Below, one piece after another: positions 54,897-64,000 of a DNA stretch of 64,000 bases. Each line of letters begins with the position of its first letter. Within the stretch, counting starts at the first letter, position 1. A program made the translations under genes and the position numbers. A model generated the notes under the pieces. It was not told the origin of the DNA, searched no databases, and worked only from the letters and a program-made list of their open reading frames with translations. This DNA is from Flavobacteriales bacterium. Lineage in GTDB: Bacteria > Bacteroidota > Bacteroidia > Flavobacteriales > Flavobacteriaceae. The stretch is from assembly GCA_027067965.1 (NCBI GenBank), contig JAMOUV010000032.1:1-64000 (forward strand). The letters are read 5' to 3'.

Positions 54897-56252
54897 ATGA
54901 GAAATAAAAAAATCGAAAATATAATATACGAATTAGTAGACCAATATACTTATGATGATTCCAGTAATAGACCATGGATTATTGGCTTTAGTGGAGGAAA
55001 AGATTCAACTGTCCTACTCACTTTGGTTTGGCGAGCATTAGAAAAGATCAAACAAGAATTACAGTTTGAATTAAAAAGACAAGTTTATGTTGTTTGTAAT
55101 GATACTATGGTTGAAAATCCAATTATTTCAGAATATGTCGATGATGTTTTAGAAAAAATAGAAAATGCAGCAAGAAGTCAAAACTTACCTATTGTTGTAA
55201 AAAAAACCATTCCTAAAATTGAAGAAACATTTTGGGTGAATGTTATAGGAAAAGGATATCCTGTGCCTAATAATTCATTTCGTTGGTGCACCGATAAGTT
55301 AAAAATTAGACCAACATCAGCATTTTTAACTGAACAAATTGATGAGAAAGGTGAAGCAATTATTTTAATAGGTGCAAGAAGTAGTGAAAGTGCCACGAGA
55401 GCCAAGTCTATAAAAAAACATGAAATAAAAGGGAGAAGATTAACAAAACATCCTAATCATCATAATACAATGGTATATTCCCCCATAAAGGAACTAACTT
55501 TAGAAGAAATATGGTATATTATTAATGCTCTACCTTCGCCTTGGGGATATGATAATTCTAAACTATTTAGTATTTATGCTAATGCAAGTGCTGATGATTA
55601 TGAGTGTCCTACAGTTGTTACAAATAAAAATCATACATCTTGTGGACAAAGTAGATTTGGTTGTTGGACATGCACAGTAGTAAAAGAAGACAAATCTATG
55701 TCAGCCTTAATTAAAAATGGAGAAAAATGGCTTACACCTCTATTAAAATATAGAGACCGATTGGTTGAAGAAAGAAATATTTCTAAAAACAGAATGGTAA
55801 CACGTAGAAATGGACAAATGGCAGTTACTGAAGATGGCCACAATCAAGGAAGTTATACAGCTGAATATCGAGCTAGAAAATTAAAAGAATTATTAGAAAT
55901 TCAAAAAGAAATTCAAAAAACGAATCCATTAATTGAATTGATAACTAATCAAGAGTTAATAGCCATACAAGTTTATTGGTATAGAGATGGCATATTTGAT
56001 TATAAGGTTGGTGAGATTTATTCAAAAATTTATGGACGAAAAATAGATACTGAAAATTCAAATCTTGAAACAACTATTGAAAAACAATTGTTAAAAAGTA
56101 TTTGTCAAGAAAACCCGGATGATTATGAATTGATTAATAATCTATTAACTTTACAACATAGTAAAACTCTTTTGCTTTCAAATTACGGTTTGCAAAATGA
56201 TATAGAAAGAAGAATTGAAAAATATGTCAAAACAATAGGCAATGAGGATTAA
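54897..56252 (+). CDS. dndC: DNA phosphorothioation protein DndC
   Basis: A 451-residue PP-loop enzyme related to PAPS reductases. It activates the DNA backbone and hands over sulfur during phosphorothioation. The ATP pyrophosphatase loop is SGGKDS (32-37). Cys131 lies in FRWCTDKLKIRP, and Cys249, Cys256 and Cys259 in SCGQSRFGCWTCTVV, with Cys237 before them, are candidate iron-sulfur ligands. The C-terminal helical region (about 300-451) matches the DndC extension and is absent from sulfate-assimilation enzymes. It overlaps dndD by 11 bp. No cysteine desulfurase is adjacent; a chromosomal IscS/SufS-type enzyme presumably supplies sulfur, as in known IscS-dependent systems (inference). Confidence 0.93.
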   Translation: MRNKKIENIIYELVDQYTYDDSSNRPWIIGFSGGKDSTVLLTLVWRALEKIKQELQFELKRQVYVVCNDTMVENPIISEYVDDVLEKIENAARSQNLPIVVKKTIPKIEETFWVNVIGKGYPVPNNSFRWCTDKLKIRPTSAFLTEQIDEKGEAIILIGARSSESATRAKSIKKHEIKGRRLTKHPNHHNTMVYSPIKELTLEEIWYIINALPSPWGYDNSKLFSIYANASADDYECPTVVTNKNHTSCGQSRFGCWTCTVVKEDKSMSALIKNGEKWLTPLLKYRDRLVEERNISKNRMVTRRNGQMAVTEDGHNQGSYTAEYRARKLKELLEIQKEIQKTNPLIELITNQELIAIQVYWYRDGIFDYKVGEIYSKIYGRKIDTENSNLETTIEKQLLKSICQENPDDYELINNLLTLQHSKTLLLSNYGLQNDIERRIEKYVKTIGNED

Positions 56253-58329
56253 TAAGGTTATATTAAATAATTTTAGAATATATAAAGGGAAAAATGAAAT
56301 TCATTTTTCTAACCATGATGAATCTAAAAACATTTCTATCATTGCAGGACAAAATGGGTTTGGAAAAACGACATTTCTTTCAGCATTAGTTTGGGGATTC
56401 TATGGAAGATTAATTTCTGATGTAGATGAAAAATATAAAAAAGAGATTTATGAATCAGGAGGATATAAAAAGTATGCAAAAACAATTTTAAATAAAGATA
56501 TTTACAATAATGAAAAGGAAACAAAAATATTTAGTGTTGAAATAGAACTTTCTGATGTATATATTCCTTCTGTTCCTTGCAAAAATATTGTAATAAAAAG
56601 AGAATTTGATGTAAATACTGAAAAAGAATTTGTAAAAATATTAATTGATGGGTTTGAAAATGAATTAACAAAAGAGGTTGGAGCAGATTTATTTATTAAT
56701 GATTTTATTTTACCACGAGAGATTGCTAAATTCTTTCTTTTTGATGCTGAAAAAATAGTTTCTTTAGCAGAAATAAAAACTATACACGAAAAAAGAAAAT
56801 TAAGTAAAGCATATTCTGAAGTTTTAGGAATAAACAAATATGAAAAGCTGAAGAAAAACCTAGAAAGTCTTCAAATAAAATTTAGGAAAAAATCCGCAAG
56901 TAAAAAAGATAGAAATAAGTTAGAAAAATTACAATTAGAAGCTGAGGATACTAGAAAATTAATCGAAATTAATGAATCAAGAATTAAATCTAATCAAGAT
57001 GAAATTGAACGATTGAAAGATTTATCGGAAGAATATCAAGAAAAATTGATAAGAGAAGGAAATACAATGACAGTCGAAGATTTAATAAGGCACAAAAAAT
57101 TACGTGACACATTAAAAGCTCAAAGTGTTGAAATTAAAGCTAAATTAAAAGAGTTATTAGAATTAGCACCATTTGCAATAGCAGGAAGTAAAACTAGATT
57201 ATTATACAATCAGATATACGCTGAATTTCAACAAAAACAAAAACAAATTGATATAAATTTTATTAAAACTAAAATAGAAACTATTAAAGAAAAAATTAAT
57301 AATCAATTTGAAACCAAAACAATTCCTAACGACATAAAAAATGAAGTGATTAAGATAATATCTGAAACTATTTTAGAAGATATTGGTCAACAAAAAGTTA
57401 CAGTAGAAAAAATTTTGCTTGACTTAAACGCAGAACAGTCTAATGAATTTTTTGCAATTTATGATAACTTAAAAAATTCATTTAATGTTTTATTTAAACA
57501 GATTGTAAAAGAAGAAAGAAACAATAGAATATTTTTAGCTAAAACTTTAAAAAAGATTTCAAATGCTGAGTCAAAAGAAGCCGATGTTTTAACTAAAAAA
57601 TATAAAACAGAAAAAGCAATTATAGATAAGAAAATAAAAGAATTAACTATAGAACAAAATAAATTATATGAAGAAATTGGAGCTTTACAACAAAAACTTA
57701 CTACAAAATCAAAACTTATTTCAGAATTAGCAAAAAGGGTAAAACTTGATGATTTAGATGATAAAAAAGACAAAGTTACCAGCAGACTTATAAAAGAGCT
57801 TAATGATTTTATAATAAGATATAAATCTGAAAAGAAATTTTCTTTACAACAAAGAATTAAACAAGAACTTGTAAAATTAATGCACAAAAAAGACTTTATA
57901 TCTGAAGTTGATGTCGTAATAAGCAATGACATTATTGACATTAATCTTATTGATAGAAATGGGAATATCATTGATAAAGAAACTTTATCCAAAGGAGAAC
58001 AACAATTATTTGCAACAGCACTTCTTAAGTCATTAGTTGATGAGTCGGGAATTCAATTCCCTGTTTTTATTGACAGCCCCTTACAGAAATTTGATAAAAA
58101 ACATTCTCAAAATATAATAACAGAATTTTATCCATCAATTTCAAAACAAGTAATATTATTTCCTTTACTTGAAAAGGAATTGACAAAGAAAGAATACGAT
58201 TTGTTATTGCCTTATGTTTCTCAAACTTTTATTATTGAGAACAATGATGATAGCTCTAAAATAACAGAATGTAAGCCAAATGAATTATTTAATTTAATTG
58301 AAAATAAAAACAATGTTTACACACATTAA
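56242..58329 (+). CDS. dndD: DNA phosphorothioation ATPase DndD
   Basis: A 695-residue SMC/Rad50-like ATPase of the modification complex, thought to supply energy for or gate access to DNA. Walker A is GQNGFGKT (36-43); the family segment LPREIAKFFLFDAEKI sits at 157-172. Long coiled coils (about 195-270 and 425-525) flank a hinge without a CxxC hook. The ABC signature is LSKGEQQ (582-588) and the Walker B region is FIDSP (609-613). Start ATG at 56242 overlaps dndC. The 3' end overlaps dndE by 17 bp. Confidence 0.92.
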   Translation: MRINKVILNNFRIYKGKNEIHFSNHDESKNISIIAGQNGFGKTTFLSALVWGFYGRLISDVDEKYKKEIYESGGYKKYAKTILNKDIYNNEKETKIFSVEIELSDVYIPSVPCKNIVIKREFDVNTEKEFVKILIDGFENELTKEVGADLFINDFILPREIAKFFLFDAEKIVSLAEIKTIHEKRKLSKAYSEVLGINKYEKLKKNLESLQIKFRKKSASKKDRNKLEKLQLEAEDTRKLIEINESRIKSNQDEIERLKDLSEEYQEKLIREGNTMTVEDLIRHKKLRDTLKAQSVEIKAKLKELLELAPFAIAGSKTRLLYNQIYAEFQQKQKQIDINFIKTKIETIKEKINNQFETKTIPNDIKNEVIKIISETILEDIGQQKVTVEKILLDLNAEQSNEFFAIYDNLKNSFNVLFKQIVKEERNNRIFLAKTLKKISNAESKEADVLTKKYKTEKAIIDKKIKELTIEQNKLYEEIGALQQKLTTKSKLISELAKRVKLDDLDDKKDKVTSRLIKELNDFIIRYKSEKKFSLQQRIKQELVKLMHKKDFISEVDVVISNDIIDINLIDRNGNIIDKETLSKGEQQLFATALLKSLVDESGIQFPVFIDSPLQKFDKKHSQNIITEFYPSISKQVILFPLLEKELTKKEYDLLLPYVSQTFIIENNDDSSKITECKPNELFNLIENKNNVYTH

Positions 58330-58705
58330 AACATCTAAAGCCAATCGAGAATTAGTTTCAAAATTAACCAGAAAGTTAAATTTAGGAACTGAAAATCATA
58401 TTGCTAGAATTGCTTTAACCTATTCTTTGTCAAAAGATAGAAAAATGGATTTGTCGAATATTAAAGATTCAGGAGGTAAAGAATACAGTAAAAATGTTCT
58501 TTTTGGGAATTATATGCCTTTTTATATTTCTCTAATTTGTGTTCATTATAATTTATATAAAACTGACAAGGATATCCCCAAATATATTAAAATGCACATT
58601 GATGATGGTCTAGAATTAATAAATAAAGAATTAAATGAAAACCCAAATTTGGATGGGTTTGAATATATAATAGATAAAATTGAAAAAGGATTATCAAAGA
58701 TTTAA
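58313..58705 (+). CDS. dndE: DNA phosphorothioation protein DndE
   Basis: A 130-residue small helical protein; DndE proteins bind nicked double-stranded DNA as a tetramer and are required for modification. The pattern NRELVSKLTRKLNLGTENHIARIALTYSL, then GNYMPFYISLICVHYN and KMHIDDGLELI, matches the DndE family in order and spacing. I chose the ATG at 58313 (MFTHIKTSKAN) rather than 58298, because the family begins close to this point; it overlaps dndD by 17 bp. The C-terminal 30 residues are a charged extension. Confidence 0.88.
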   Translation: MFTHIKTSKANRELVSKLTRKLNLGTENHIARIALTYSLSKDRKMDLSNIKDSGGKEYSKNVLFGNYMPFYISLICVHYNLYKTDKDIPKYIKMHIDDGLELINKELNENPNLDGFEYIIDKIEKGLSKI

Positions 58706-58710
58706 ATATT

Positions 58711-59301
58711 ATGGAAAAAGCTTTACAAAATTTTGGTTTACGGGAAGTACTAGAAATATTATTCCCAGGCATATATGTAACATCTTTTATATATTTGTGT
58801 GTAAATGAATTAACAACTATAAATATTACAAACAATAGCTTTATAAACGGTGTTATTTTTTCATTATTTTCAATACTAATAGGGCTAATTTTTTATTGGA
58901 TTAATCTACCTAAAAAAATACCATTCTTTAAAAATAATTTACCTACGGAAAAATTAATAAAGAATCACACAAACATTACCAAAACAAAACTTATTAATGC
59001 TTTTTTTAAATACTATGATAATGCTATTTCAGAAAAGCAAAAAACAAAAACAGATACTTATACTGCTTTATATCACTTCACTATAAATATTGCTTTGGGG
59101 TCTGTTATCCTATTAATTGTTTATTGTTGCTTCTGTAAGAATTATTATAATCATATTACAATCATATTAATTATATTAATTTTATCAATAATAAATGCGT
59201 TGGGATTATTTTATGGTGAAAAAAAAATAAAATATATGTTTGATAGGCAATATAATAGTTTCATTAATTCTGATAATTATAAAACTCTTATCCAAGAATA
59301 A
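58711..59301 (+). CDS. Four-helix membrane protein in the dnd operon, unknown function
   Basis: A 196-residue integral membrane protein I do not recognise. Four hydrophobic segments are visible at about residues 12-33, 44-66, 121-142 and 148-168. Between segments 2 and 3 is a 50-residue basic loop (KNNLPTEKLIKNHTNITKTK and onward), and a charged tail of about 28 residues follows segment 4. It starts 5 nt after dndE and ends 1 nt before the helicase gene, so it belongs to the same transcript. Possible roles are membrane tethering of the complex or an effector acting on the membrane; both are inference. Confidence 0.7.
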   Translation: MEKALQNFGLREVLEILFPGIYVTSFIYLCVNELTTINITNNSFINGVIFSLFSILIGLIFYWINLPKKIPFFKNNLPTEKLIKNHTNITKTKLINAFFKYYDNAISEKQKTKTDTYTALYHFTINIALGSVILLIVYCCFCKNYYNHITIILIILILSIINALGLFYGEKKIKYMFDRQYNSFINSDNYKTLIQE

Positions 59302-59302
59302 T

Positions 59303-61558
59303 ATGCTTAAAACAACGCCATTTCATATCGTATATGCAACCGGTGAAGAACACGAACCAATAGAGTTTTTCTTTGATGCTTTATTGGAAAGCAAAACCTT
59401 TGATTTAGGTTTAGGTTACTTTAGTTCATCCGCAATTAGTGCTTTAAGTGCCGGATTTGCATATTTTATTCATCGAGGTGGCAAAATGAGAATTATCATT
59501 AATGATGTTTTGTCTCAAAAAGATAAAGATGCTATTGAACAAGCAATTAATTCTGAAGTAGAATTTGAAGAAGCTATTTTACAGGATATTAAACAATTAT
59601 TTAAGACTTTATCAAAACAAGATGAACATTTTTTTAAATGTCTATCTTATTTAATTTCGAAAGATAGGATTGAATTTTTAGCAACTAAACCAAAAAATGG
59701 GAAACGAGGTATTGCCCATAACAAATATGGCATATTTAAAGACGAAGAAGGAAATAAAGTAGCTTTTAATGGTTCAGCAAATTTCTCAAAAAATGCACTA
59801 ATTAATAATGTAGAATCAATTAGTTGTTATAAATCTTGGACATCAAGCGAAGAAGACAAAAAAAGATTAAGCTATTTTGAAAATCTGTTTAATAAAACGT
59901 GGAATGGCAAAGCAAAAAACTTAGAAGTTATTCCAATAAACAGAGTAAAAACGTATATACAAAATACTTTTGATGTAGATGATATTGAGGAACTTCTAAA
60001 TGAAGAAGTAAAGTTAATATCGCAAAATAAAAGATTACCAAAAAGAATAAAAGAAAAGGTAGACAAATTATTTTCTACTAATAAAAAAGAACCTCATTTT
60101 CCTATCTTTAATGGTAAACAAGCTGAACCAAGACAATATCAAAAAGATGCTTATAAAGCTTGGATTAATAATAATTACCTTGGTATTTTTGCAATGGCAA
60201 CAGGCACAGGTAAAACAATAACTTCATTGAATTGCATATTAAATGAATACAAAAAGAATAAATCCTATAATGTTTTAATTTTAGTTCCAACTAGAGCGTT
60301 GGTGTCTCAATGGATAGAAGAAGCAAAAAAATTTAATTTTAGTAATATTTACACAACTCAAGATAAAAATTGGTTTAATATTTTAAGTGACCTTTTATTC
60401 AATCTTATGTTAAATAGTGATGAAGATAACAATATTGTATTTATTTCAACATATGCAAGCTTTAATGGAGATAAATTTCAACGCTTAATGCGCAATAAAG
60501 GTTGGAATGAGTTTATTTTAATAGCTGATGAAGCTCACAATATGGGTTCACCTAGAACCTTAAAAAACTTACCAAACAACATTCTTAAAAGAATAGGTTT
60601 ATCTGCAACCCCAGAAAGAGTTTATGATGAAAAAGGCTCAAATAAAATTTATGAATTTTTTAATTCAAAACCACCTTGCTATACTTACTCATACTCAATG
60701 TATAAAGCTATCACACAGGAGCCAACAGTTTTAACAAAATATTTTTATTATCCATATTTTACTCATTTAAACGAAAAAGAATTAGTTGAATATAATGAAA
60801 TTACCAAACAACTATATAGAAATTATGATCCAAAAACAGGAGAATTTAATGAATTTGGTAAAAGACTTTTAATAAAACGAAAACGAATTATTAATAAAGC
60901 GGAAAATAAAATTGAAGTATTAAAACAGATTTTTTTAGATGTTCAAAAAAAGGAATCTAATTTAAAATATACTTTTGTTTATGTTCCGGAAGGTAAAGAC
61001 ACTAATTATGATATAGAAGACAGATATATTTTGGACAATAATGATAAAAGATTAATTGACAAATATGCAAAAGCTATTAAATCTTTTGGATATTCTACAC
61101 ATAATTTACTAGCAGACACACCCAATAGAGAAAAAGTTCTTTCTCAATTTGAAAGAGGTTTGATAGATGTGCTTTTGGCAATGAAAATTTTAGATGAAGG
61201 TGTCGATATTCCTATTACTAGAAATGCAATATTTTGTGCTAGCACAGGGAATCCCAGACAGTATATTCAACGAAGAGGTAGAATATTAAGGAAATATAAA
61301 GGCAAACAATATGCAAATGTTTTTGATATAATTGTTGCCCCGGAGGAACGATATATTAATAATTTAGAGGATCAATTGAAAGAAATGGAAATAAACATTT
61401 TTAGAAATGAACTTCGAAGGGTAGCAAATTTCTTATATGCTGCAGAAAACCGTCATCAAGTATTATCTGGAAAATTAGGGGAATTAGCTGATTATTACAA
61501 CATAAACATACATCAATTAATACAAGATAATTTAAATTTAGATAATAAATGTAAATAA
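59303..61558 (+). CDS. Fused PLD-type nuclease and DEAH superfamily 2 helicase (putative restriction enzyme)
   Basis: A 751-residue two-part protein. Residues about 5-205 form a phospholipase D-like nuclease domain: the HxK motif HNKYGIF has His139 and Lys141, followed by GSANFS (157-162). Residues about 275-680 form a superfamily 2 helicase with Walker A ATGTGKT (299-305), DEAH (409-412), SATP (434-437) and the arginine motif QRRGR (656-660). The ATG at 59303 gives an N terminus at the start of the PLD fold; an in-frame codon at 59240 lies inside the previous gene. Next to DndCDE it is the best candidate for a nuclease that senses unmodified DNA. The restriction role is inference. Confidence 0.88.
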   Translation: MLKTTPFHIVYATGEEHEPIEFFFDALLESKTFDLGLGYFSSSAISALSAGFAYFIHRGGKMRIIINDVLSQKDKDAIEQAINSEVEFEEAILQDIKQLFKTLSKQDEHFFKCLSYLISKDRIEFLATKPKNGKRGIAHNKYGIFKDEEGNKVAFNGSANFSKNALINNVESISCYKSWTSSEEDKKRLSYFENLFNKTWNGKAKNLEVIPINRVKTYIQNTFDVDDIEELLNEEVKLISQNKRLPKRIKEKVDKLFSTNKKEPHFPIFNGKQAEPRQYQKDAYKAWINNNYLGIFAMATGTGKTITSLNCILNEYKKNKSYNVLILVPTRALVSQWIEEAKKFNFSNIYTTQDKNWFNILSDLLFNLMLNSDEDNNIVFISTYASFNGDKFQRLMRNKGWNEFILIADEAHNMGSPRTLKNLPNNILKRIGLSATPERVYDEKGSNKIYEFFNSKPPCYTYSYSMYKAITQEPTVLTKYFYYPYFTHLNEKELVEYNEITKQLYRNYDPKTGEFNEFGKRLLIKRKRIINKAENKIEVLKQIFLDVQKKESNLKYTFVYVPEGKDTNYDIEDRYILDNNDKRLIDKYAKAIKSFGYSTHNLLADTPNREKVLSQFERGLIDVLLAMKILDEGVDIPITRNAIFCASTGNPRQYIQRRGRILRKYKGKQYANVFDIIVAPEERYINNLEDQLKEMEINIFRNELRRVANFLYAAENRHQVLSGKLGELADYYNINIHQLIQDNLNLDNKCK

Positions 61559-61566
61559 TTACAACT

Positions 61567-61764
61567 ATGGAAATAGAAGAAAGAATAATTTTAGAAATTG
61601 AAAAATCGTTTGAAGAAATTCAAGAAGAGATTGACAAGGAATTATTAAAAAAAGTAAATAAACTTTTTATTTACAAATCAGTGAAATTGACTGAAGACAA
61701 AGAGTTTTCAAATAGAGATGCTATTAATCAGATAGAAAATAAATTGTATGATATTATAAAATAA
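61567..61764 (+). CDS. 65-residue acidic helical protein, unknown function
   Basis: A very small charged protein with mostly Glu, Ile and Lys (EERIILEIEKSFEEIQEEID), predicted to be two alpha helices with a short basic turn. No metal-binding or catalytic motif is seen. It lies 8 nt after the helicase and 7 nt before the second ATPase. This spacing and coding bias support a real gene that may act as an adaptor or inhibitor between the two; that role is inference. Confidence 0.7.
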   Translation: MEIEERIILEIEKSFEEIQEEIDKELLKKVNKLFIYKSVKLTEDKEFSNRDAINQIENKLYDIIK

Positions 61765-63927: not shown

Positions 63928-64000
63928 ATGAATAATATACTTGATGAAATATTAGCTTATAGTCCGAAAGTTGAGGCAAAATATAAAGAATCAATCATCG
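63928..64000 (+). CDS. Start of a further operon gene, cut by the window edge
   Basis: An ATG at 63928, 2 nt after the ATPase stop, opens a frame that runs uninterrupted for 24 codons to the window end (MNNILDEILAYSPKVEAKYK and on). The spacing and codon use match the operon. Too little is visible for any family assignment. Confidence 0.6.
   Translation, partial: MNNILDEILAYSPKVEAKYKESII

What the first reader, a model, noticed from the sequence alone, without database searches (positions are those of the whole stretch)
61567..61764. 65-residue acidic protein conserved in position between helicase and ATPase
A tiny gene with good spacing on both sides is easily overlooked in automatic annotation. 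Its charge pattern suggests a protein-binding adaptor, an inhibitor or a DNA mimic.
Basis: inference. Interest (0 to 1): 0.5.

Follow-up and report, generated by a model that had tools for sequence, protein, structure and literature searches.

The report
PbeB: small anti-phage ATPase-docking protein
The tiny gene is a real, fast-evolving part (PbeB) of a known bacterial anti-virus system; relatives suggest it is a small clip that holds onto the system's DNA-scanning motor, the same clip that a partner enzyme carries as its tail.

Summary
The 65-codon frame is real and coding: a relative with 83% identical PbeA keeps it (57% identity, in-frame gaps, pN/pS 0.41). The locus is a DndCDE phosphorothioation operon followed by a PbeABCD-type module. 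The small gene fills the pbeB position, between PbeA (PLD nuclease-helicase) and PbeC (CxxC-hook Rad50-like ATPase); pbeD follows just past the window. In Haloterrigena, pbeB (66 aa) is essential for antiviral protection (PMC6459918). So it is a divergent occupant of a known slot.

New here: PbeB proteins of several lineages are homologous to the C-terminal tail of DndC. One Pfam model (Sp-DndD) matches both above its cut-off; 5 of 5 tail-less DndCs next to an ABC ATPase come with a separate small gene, while 15 of 15 tail-bearing DndCs next to DndD leave no room for one. The E. coli DndC tail binds DndD, and mutations that break binding (PMC12193691) fall on the shared motif. Best mechanism: PbeB is a free helical hairpin docking on PbeC. 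The window's own sequence is too diverged to prove this alone. Acidity is not conserved, so a DNA mimic is unlikely.

The parts
54897..56252 (+). dndC, phosphorothioation sulfurtransferase; its C-terminal ~45 residues (about 408-451) are the tail to which other PbeB proteins are homologous
   Evidence: TIGR03183 427 bits, cut-off 290; tail
56242..58329 (+). dndD, ABC ATPase without CxxC hook
   Evidence: TIGR03185 248.3 bits, cut-off 245.85; no CxxC. PADLOC's best model here is named PbeC
58298..58705 (+). dndE
   Evidence: PF08870 93.3 bits, cut-off 25; TIGR03184 53.0, below cut-off 71.85
58711..59301 (+). membrane protein of unknown role inside the operon
   Evidence: hydrophobic stretches read from the sequence; only weak Csx27 hit E 0.0029
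59240..61558 (+). pbeA, PLD nuclease fused to SF2 helicase (longest frame starts TTG 59240; similarity to relatives begins about 59333)
   Evidence: PADLOC PbeA PDLC02706 E 3.5e-248; PF13091, PF04851 above cut-off
61567..61764 (+). the finding: small gene in the pbeB position, 65 aa, predicted helix-loop-helix
61772..63925 (+). pbeC, Rad50-like ABC ATPase with CxxC hook at residue 366 and Walker A at residue 31
   Evidence: PADLOC PbeC E 6e-41; CxxC and Walker A
63928..64000 (+). start of pbeD (156 aa, runs beyond the window to contig position 64398)
   Evidence: L002:3929-4399; TIGR04062 48.7 bits, below cut-off 74.25; 75% identical to its counterpart in L013

Best explanation
The frame is the PbeB subunit, by position, of a DndCDE-PbeABCD anti-virus locus. 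It most likely works as a free docking clip. A short helical hairpin sits on the head and neck of the Rad50-like ATPase PbeC, as the C-terminal tail of DndC sits on DndD. It would thereby couple the ATPase-PbeD (DndE-like) DNA-scanning pair to the effector PbeA. Shown: gene, coding selection and place in the operon (here); requirement for defence of the Haloterrigena PbeB (published); homology of PbeB proteins of other lineages with the DndC tail (here); DndC tail binding to DndD (published for E. coli, by AlphaFold3 plus pull-down with point mutants). Inferred: that PbeB binds PbeC at the same site, that the window's diverged PbeB keeps this role, and that it links PbeA.
For: System: PbeA E 3.5e-248, PbeC and Dnd models. 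Homology: Pfam PF20306 Sp-DndD (cut-off 27.2 bits) hits the PbeB-position proteins L033 (46.6) and L032 (33.2), the C-terminal tails of DndC of L032 (35.0), L140 (38.4) and L028 (39.5), and 4 of 4 annotated stand-alone Sp proteins tested (L147-L150; 29.2-56.5). Without Pfam: a DndC-tail HMM against 7254 frames puts PbeB proteins at 4 of the first 5 and 6 of the first 10 non-DndC hits; the reversed and 12 column-shuffled models reach at most 2 of 5 and 3 of 10. hhalign of a broad PbeB set against full-length DndC scores 32.5 and lands on the tail; 100 column shuffles reach at most 14.7 and the reversed set 17.3. Gene order: tail-less DndC next to an ABC ATPase has a separate Sp gene in 5 of 5 (L147-L151), each just before an ATPase gene; tail-bearing DndC next to DndD leaves no room for one in 15 of 15 (window, L013, L019, L021, L028, L032, L037, L049, L051, L052; L140, L141, L143-L145). 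In L034 the order is small gene-PbeC-PbeD-PbeA, so the small gene goes with the ATPase. Function: in E. coli, DndD's ATPase head and coiled-coil 1 bind DndC 433-482 and its last helix, and L458D/E462A/R471A disrupts binding (PMC12193691). These residues check out in E. coli DndC L139 and fall on the shared L-x3-E-x8-R motif. pbeB deletion abolishes protection (PMC6459918). AF2 of the window protein: helix 2-43 and helix 49-64, pLDDT 85.6.
Against: The window's own protein matches no PbeB, Sp-CxC or Sp-DndD model and is not significantly similar to DndC tails (Smith-Waterman p 0.30). It ranks 83rd of 7254 with the combined model, E 40; as a pair with L013 against that model, p 0.067 with 19 aligned columns. 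Only 3 of 20 PbeB-position proteins tested pass a Pfam cut-off (2 Sp-DndD, 1 Sp-CxC), and Sp-CxC (L140) shows no similarity to the tail, so unrelated small proteins may fill the slot in different lineages. In this window DndC keeps its own tail, so PbeB is an extra copy for PbeC. The AF2 model came from one sequence; Foldseek found no match. The AF2 model of DndC failed (pLDDT 35.8). No complex was modelled or measured.
Confidence: 0.62

Rival explanations
1. Negative regulator: a fast-evolving, mostly disordered protein that holds the PbeA nuclease in check and is released when a virus enzyme cleaves or modifies it (proposal of Iyer et al. 2024).
For: Proposed in print for PbeB cognates. Window PbeB evolves fastest of its neighbours: 57% identity to L013 against 74-83% for PbeA, PbeC and PbeD.
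Against: Deletion abolishes protection. The window protein is predicted helical rather than disordered. Homology with a DndC segment that binds DndD. The small gene precedes the ATPase also in Dnd loci where it follows a tail-less DndC, with no PbeA seen there. A docking subunit could still inhibit.
Confidence: 0.2
2. DNA mimic or acidic inhibitor of a DNA-binding partner.
For: Net charge -5 here and strongly negative in haloarchaea.
Against: Net charge ranges from -17 to +3 over 38 proteins and 6 are positive; the most acidic ones are from haloarchaea, whose proteins are acidic in general (recalled).
Confidence: 0.05
3. A lineage-specific small protein that replaced the ancestral PbeB in this slot and does something else.
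For: Window and L013 proteins cannot be joined to other PbeBs with significance. Pfam splits the small proteins into at least two families.
Against: Same place, size and predicted two-helix layout. Its two-sequence HMM finds a PbeB (L047) as the best outside hit, rank 3 of 7254, E 0.27.
Confidence: 0.11
4. Spurious reading frame.
For: No library names it.
Against: Selection on the frame in L013, in-frame gaps, conserved place in nearly every locus examined.
Confidence: 0.02

Closest known systems
PbeB of Haloterrigena jeotgali DndCDEA-PbeABCD (Xiong et al. 2019, PMC6459918)
   Same: Place between pbeA and pbeC, size (66 against 65 aa), PbeC and PbeD downstream, DndCDE upstream
   Different: PADLOC PbeB model (PDLC02708) does not find the window protein. 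Here a Bacteroidota operon with an extra membrane-protein gene and no dndA among the genes next to it
Pfam PF20306 Sp-DndD and PF20304 Sp-CxC, small proteins of Dnd/CxC ATPase modification systems
   Same: Size, place in front of a DndD or CxC-type ABC ATPase; two PbeB proteins of the set (L032, L033) match PF20306, one (L140) PF20304
   Different: Window protein matches neither
C-terminal tail of DndC (DndD-binding segment, PMC12193691)
   Same: In other lineages it is the same domain by Pfam and HMM tests; helical; contacts a Rad50-like ATPase
   Different: Fused to the sulfurtransferase; similarity to the window's PbeB itself is not significant
Rad50-binding domain of Mre11 (review PMC7260605)
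   Same: Works alike in outline: a helix-loop-helix contacting the base of the coiled coil of a Rad50 ATPase
   Different: Homology was not tested; Foldseek with the PbeB model returned no match of any kind. An analogy only

Membership tests
PbeABCD system | PbeA, PLD nuclease fused to SF2 helicase | tested here: met
   PDLC02706 E 3.5e-248; PLD and helicase Pfam domains above cut-off
PbeABCD system | PbeC, ABC ATPase with CxxC zinc hook | tested here: met
   PDLC02714 E 6e-41; CxxC at residue 366
PbeABCD system | PbeD, DndE-like protein after PbeC | tested here: inconclusive
   156-aa gene 2 bp after PbeC; TIGR04062 48.7 bits, under cut-off 74.25; no PADLOC match and only a chance-level Pfam match
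PbeB | small gene of about 50-80 codons between pbeA and pbeC | tested here: met
PbeB | match to PADLOC PbeB model PDLC02708 | tested here: not met
   no match; own-genome search gives only an 11.7-bit chance hit elsewhere. The model found 1 of the other 16 small proteins scanned (L032)
PbeB | needed for antiviral defence | not testable with these tools
   published for Haloterrigena only
Pfam Sp-DndD PF20306 / Sp-CxC PF20304 | score above gathering cut-off | tested here: not met
   window protein: none
DndCDE modification module | DndC, DndD, DndE models above cut-off | tested here: met
   TIGR03183, TIGR03185, PF08870; TIGR03184 for DndE below its cut-off
ABC-ATPase docking hairpin (DndC-tail type) | homology of PbeB proteins to the DndC tail | tested here: met
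   met for other lineages
ABC-ATPase docking hairpin (DndC-tail type) | significant similarity of the window's own protein to the tail | tested here: inconclusive
   weak, not significant alone
ABC-ATPase docking hairpin (DndC-tail type) | binds the ATPase head or neck | not testable with these tools

The most novel reading that the evidence does not exclude
PbeB and the DndC tail are one ancient, portable docking module. Each Rad50-like DndD/CxC ATPase has one such hairpin, either fused to DndC or encoded as a tiny gene just before the ATPase, and this module decides which effector (sulfurtransferase, PLD nuclease-helicase) rides on the DNA-scanning clamp, much as the Mre11 helix-loop-helix sits on Rad50.
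Probability: 0.5. Interest if true: 0.65.

Novelty: new member of a known kind. Interest (0 to 1): 0.47.

Why it matters
PbeB is essential for a widespread anti-virus system, yet its role is unknown; in print it is called disordered and guessed to be a negative regulator. If it is the free form of the DndC tail, its partner, its binding site and the residues to mutate are predicted at once. It would also explain why Dnd and CxC/Pbe systems share an ATPase-DndE core but drive different effectors. It further warns that automatic annotation misses an essential subunit: none of the three libraries sees it in this genome.

Tried and rejected
Acidic DNA mimic: rejected because charge varies from -17 to +3. 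Linking the window's PbeB directly to the wider family: tried with HMMs, hhalign and Smith-Waterman; not significant, and pooled sets that beat all 60 shuffles do so over only 8-13 columns. The AUC comparison was uninformative: shuffled models score as high, because composition alone separates the sets. AF2 of DndC from two sequences failed (pLDDT 35.8). Foldseek with the PbeB model gave nothing. PDB sequence searches with window DndC, PbeC and PbeB and with L032 DndC, PbeC and PbeB gave no relevant hit. Viral-contig scans with L013 PbeB and window DndC found nothing. A first idea that tail-less DndC-like proteins of L064-L067 would carry a separate small gene was not borne out: no Sp hit there, but also no ABC ATPase noticed in their short flanks. 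L152 proved to be a phage-like reductase and was not counted.

Literature: I read passages of PMC6459918, PMC10853773 and PMC7260605, and passages plus most of the Results of PMC12193691. I found no statement that PbeB or Sp is homologous to the DndC tail in searches or in the passages read; subscription papers are not covered, and Pfam's own web page was not seen.

Full report
What is there. The frame 61567-61764 is open, starts with ATG 8 bp after one gene and ends 7 bp before the next. The locus reads dndC (54897), dndD (56242), dndE (58298), a membrane protein (58711), pbeA (59240), the small gene, pbeC (61772) and, 2 bp further and beyond the window, a 156-codon pbeD candidate. The window's genome (2.05 Mb, 33 contigs) holds one copy.

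Is it a gene. One relative with 83% identical PbeA (L013, a Bacteroidetes metagenome assembly) has a 64-codon frame in the same place. It is 57% identical with whole-codon gaps, codon-position differences are 17/11/27, and pN/pS is 0.41 (Fisher p 3.1e-4); the other two forward frames hold nine stops each. PbeA, PbeC and PbeD of the pair are 83, 74 and 76% identical with pN/pS 0.16-0.22, so the small gene is the fastest-evolving of the four. In the first survey 37 of 38 adjacent PbeA-PbeC pairs have a frame of at least 45 codons there, against 7.3 expected from shuffles (14 of 38 on the reverse strand; the wrong frame choices of the script are listed under the observation check). Bacteria and haloarchaea are both represented.

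What it is. By position and size it is PbeB. Xiong et al. (PMC6459918; [quoted passage not shown] Iyer et al. (PMC10853773; [quoted passage not shown] The window's protein itself passes no PADLOC, Pfam or NCBIfam model, so it is filed as PbeB by place, not by sequence. Some records call such proteins 'DNA modification system-associated small protein' or 'CxC ATPase DNA modification system associated small protein'.

Where PbeB comes from. The PbeB of Natribaculum (L032), which does match PADLOC's PbeB (E 8e-14), also matched the C-terminal end of DndC models weakly (E 3.4e-4 in PADLOC; 4.1e-4 in NCBIfam). This led to the DndC tail, the last ~45 residues after the PAPS-reductase part. An HMM of 16 tails against 7254 frames from all loci held at that time puts PbeB proteins at 4 of the first 5 and 6 of the first 10 hits that are not DndC. 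The reversed model gives 0 and 1, and 12 column-shuffled models at most 2 and 3. The reverse search, with 18 PbeB proteins, puts five DndC proteins among the first six frames not used for training, the sixth being another PbeB. Profile-profile comparison with full-length DndC (23 sequences) scores 32.5 on the tail; 100 column shuffles reach at most 14.7 and the reversed set 17.3.

Independent confirmation by Pfam. PF20306 Sp-DndD (cut-off 27.2 bits) matches PbeB-position proteins L033 (46.6) and L032 (33.2), DndC tails of L032, L140 and L028 (35.0, 38.4, 39.5; L145 at 27.1, L141 at 21.3 and L037 at 13.1 fall below), and four stand-alone small proteins L147-L150 (29.2, 55.6, 56.5, 48.2). Misses: of 11 tail-bearing DndC tested, 3 pass (window and E. 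coli DndC do not). Of 20 PbeB-position proteins tested, 2 pass Sp-DndD and 1 (L140) passes Sp-CxC.

Gene order agrees. In Aureimonas, Burkholderia glumae, Rhizobium phaseoli and Methylorubrum (L148, L149, L150, L151) DndC lacks the tail and a 70-71-codon gene lies between it and the ATPase gene. In Mesorhizobium (L147) a tail-less DndC is followed by an ATPase, dndE, the small gene and a second ATPase. So 5 of 5 tail-less DndC with an adjacent ABC ATPase have a separate small gene just before an ATPase gene. In 15 of 15 tail-bearing DndC with DndD next to them the two genes overlap or lie within about 25 bp. Two tail-bearing DndC (L142, L146) have no DndD in the stretch seen. Four tail-less DndC-like proteins (L064-L067) have no Sp hit in the stretch seen, and I noticed no ATPase gene there.

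How it most likely works. Fu et al. (PMC12193691; passages and most of the Results read) modelled E. coli B7A DndC-DndD. The DndD ATPase head holds DndC 433-482, coiled-coil 1 holds the last DndC helix, DndE sits on coiled-coil 2, and L458D/E462A/R471A in DndC disrupts binding in a pull-down. I checked the numbering on an E. coli DndC (L139): GYPAPTRSFRW at 135-145, cysteines 146, 273, 280 and 283, and L458, E462, R471 are as published. Over 23 DndC proteins position 458 is L in 22, 462 is E or Q in 22, and 471 is R or K in 19. The PbeB of L032 has V, E and R at the same spacing, and most PbeBs of that set carry a hydrophobic pair followed two residues later by E. The plain reading is that PbeB is the same docking clip, free instead of fused, serving PbeC. 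In the window both forms coexist: DndC keeps a tail for DndD, and PbeB serves PbeC. The step from 'docks on PbeC' to 'couples PbeA' is inference.

Limits. The window's PbeB, even with L013, is not significantly linked to the tail or to other PbeBs. Its best outside HMM hit is a PbeB (L047, E 0.27, rank 3 of 7254), and its predicted shape, helix 2-43 and helix 49-64 at pLDDT 85.6 from a single sequence, fits a hairpin; single-sequence helical models are weak evidence. Pfam separates Sp-CxC from Sp-DndD, so the slot may be filled by unrelated proteins in some lineages. No translation, binding or defence was tested for this organism.

Verdict. What lifts it above routine is the link of PbeB to the DndD-binding tail of DndC, which I did not find stated in the papers searched and which makes the role of an essential, unexplained subunit directly testable.

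Noticed in passing
window 58711-59301: Hydrophobic 196-aa protein inside the operon, between dndE and pbeA, with a weak Csx27 hit (PADLOC E 0.0029); the close relative L013 has other genes in that place.
   Followed up: partly
L065, L066, L067: A ~220-aa membrane protein directly before a tail-less DndC-like protein (345-357 aa), with no DndD noticed within ~1.5 kb; possibly a separate two-gene system. Similarity of its membrane protein to the window's 58711 gene is marginal (E 0.025).
   Followed up: partly
window 56242-58329: PADLOC's best model for this DndD is named PbeC (E 2.7e-138 against 6.3e-83 for DndD); it lacks the CxxC hook. Automatic naming may confuse the two ATPases.
   Followed up: partly
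L148:5959-10923, L149:5992-10948, L150:4959-9917: Compact dndC-small gene-dndD-FtsK translocase sets without an annotated dndE (TusA-like gene also in L148 and L150): a recurrent arrangement in plasmids of proteobacteria.
   Followed up: no
L146:6004-7347: Hymenobacter plasmid dndC with the tail but no dndD among the annotated genes within 6 kb.
   Followed up: no
L024:3897-6977 and L145:17995-21048: A ~1020-aa protein annotated as sigma-factor-like helix-turn-helix directly upstream of pbeA in two alphaproteobacterial plasmids.
   Followed up: no
L034:4318-9118: Order small gene-PbeC-PbeD-PbeA, followed by PAPS-reductase and cysteine desulfurase genes: the small gene stays with the ATPase when PbeA moves.
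   Followed up: partly
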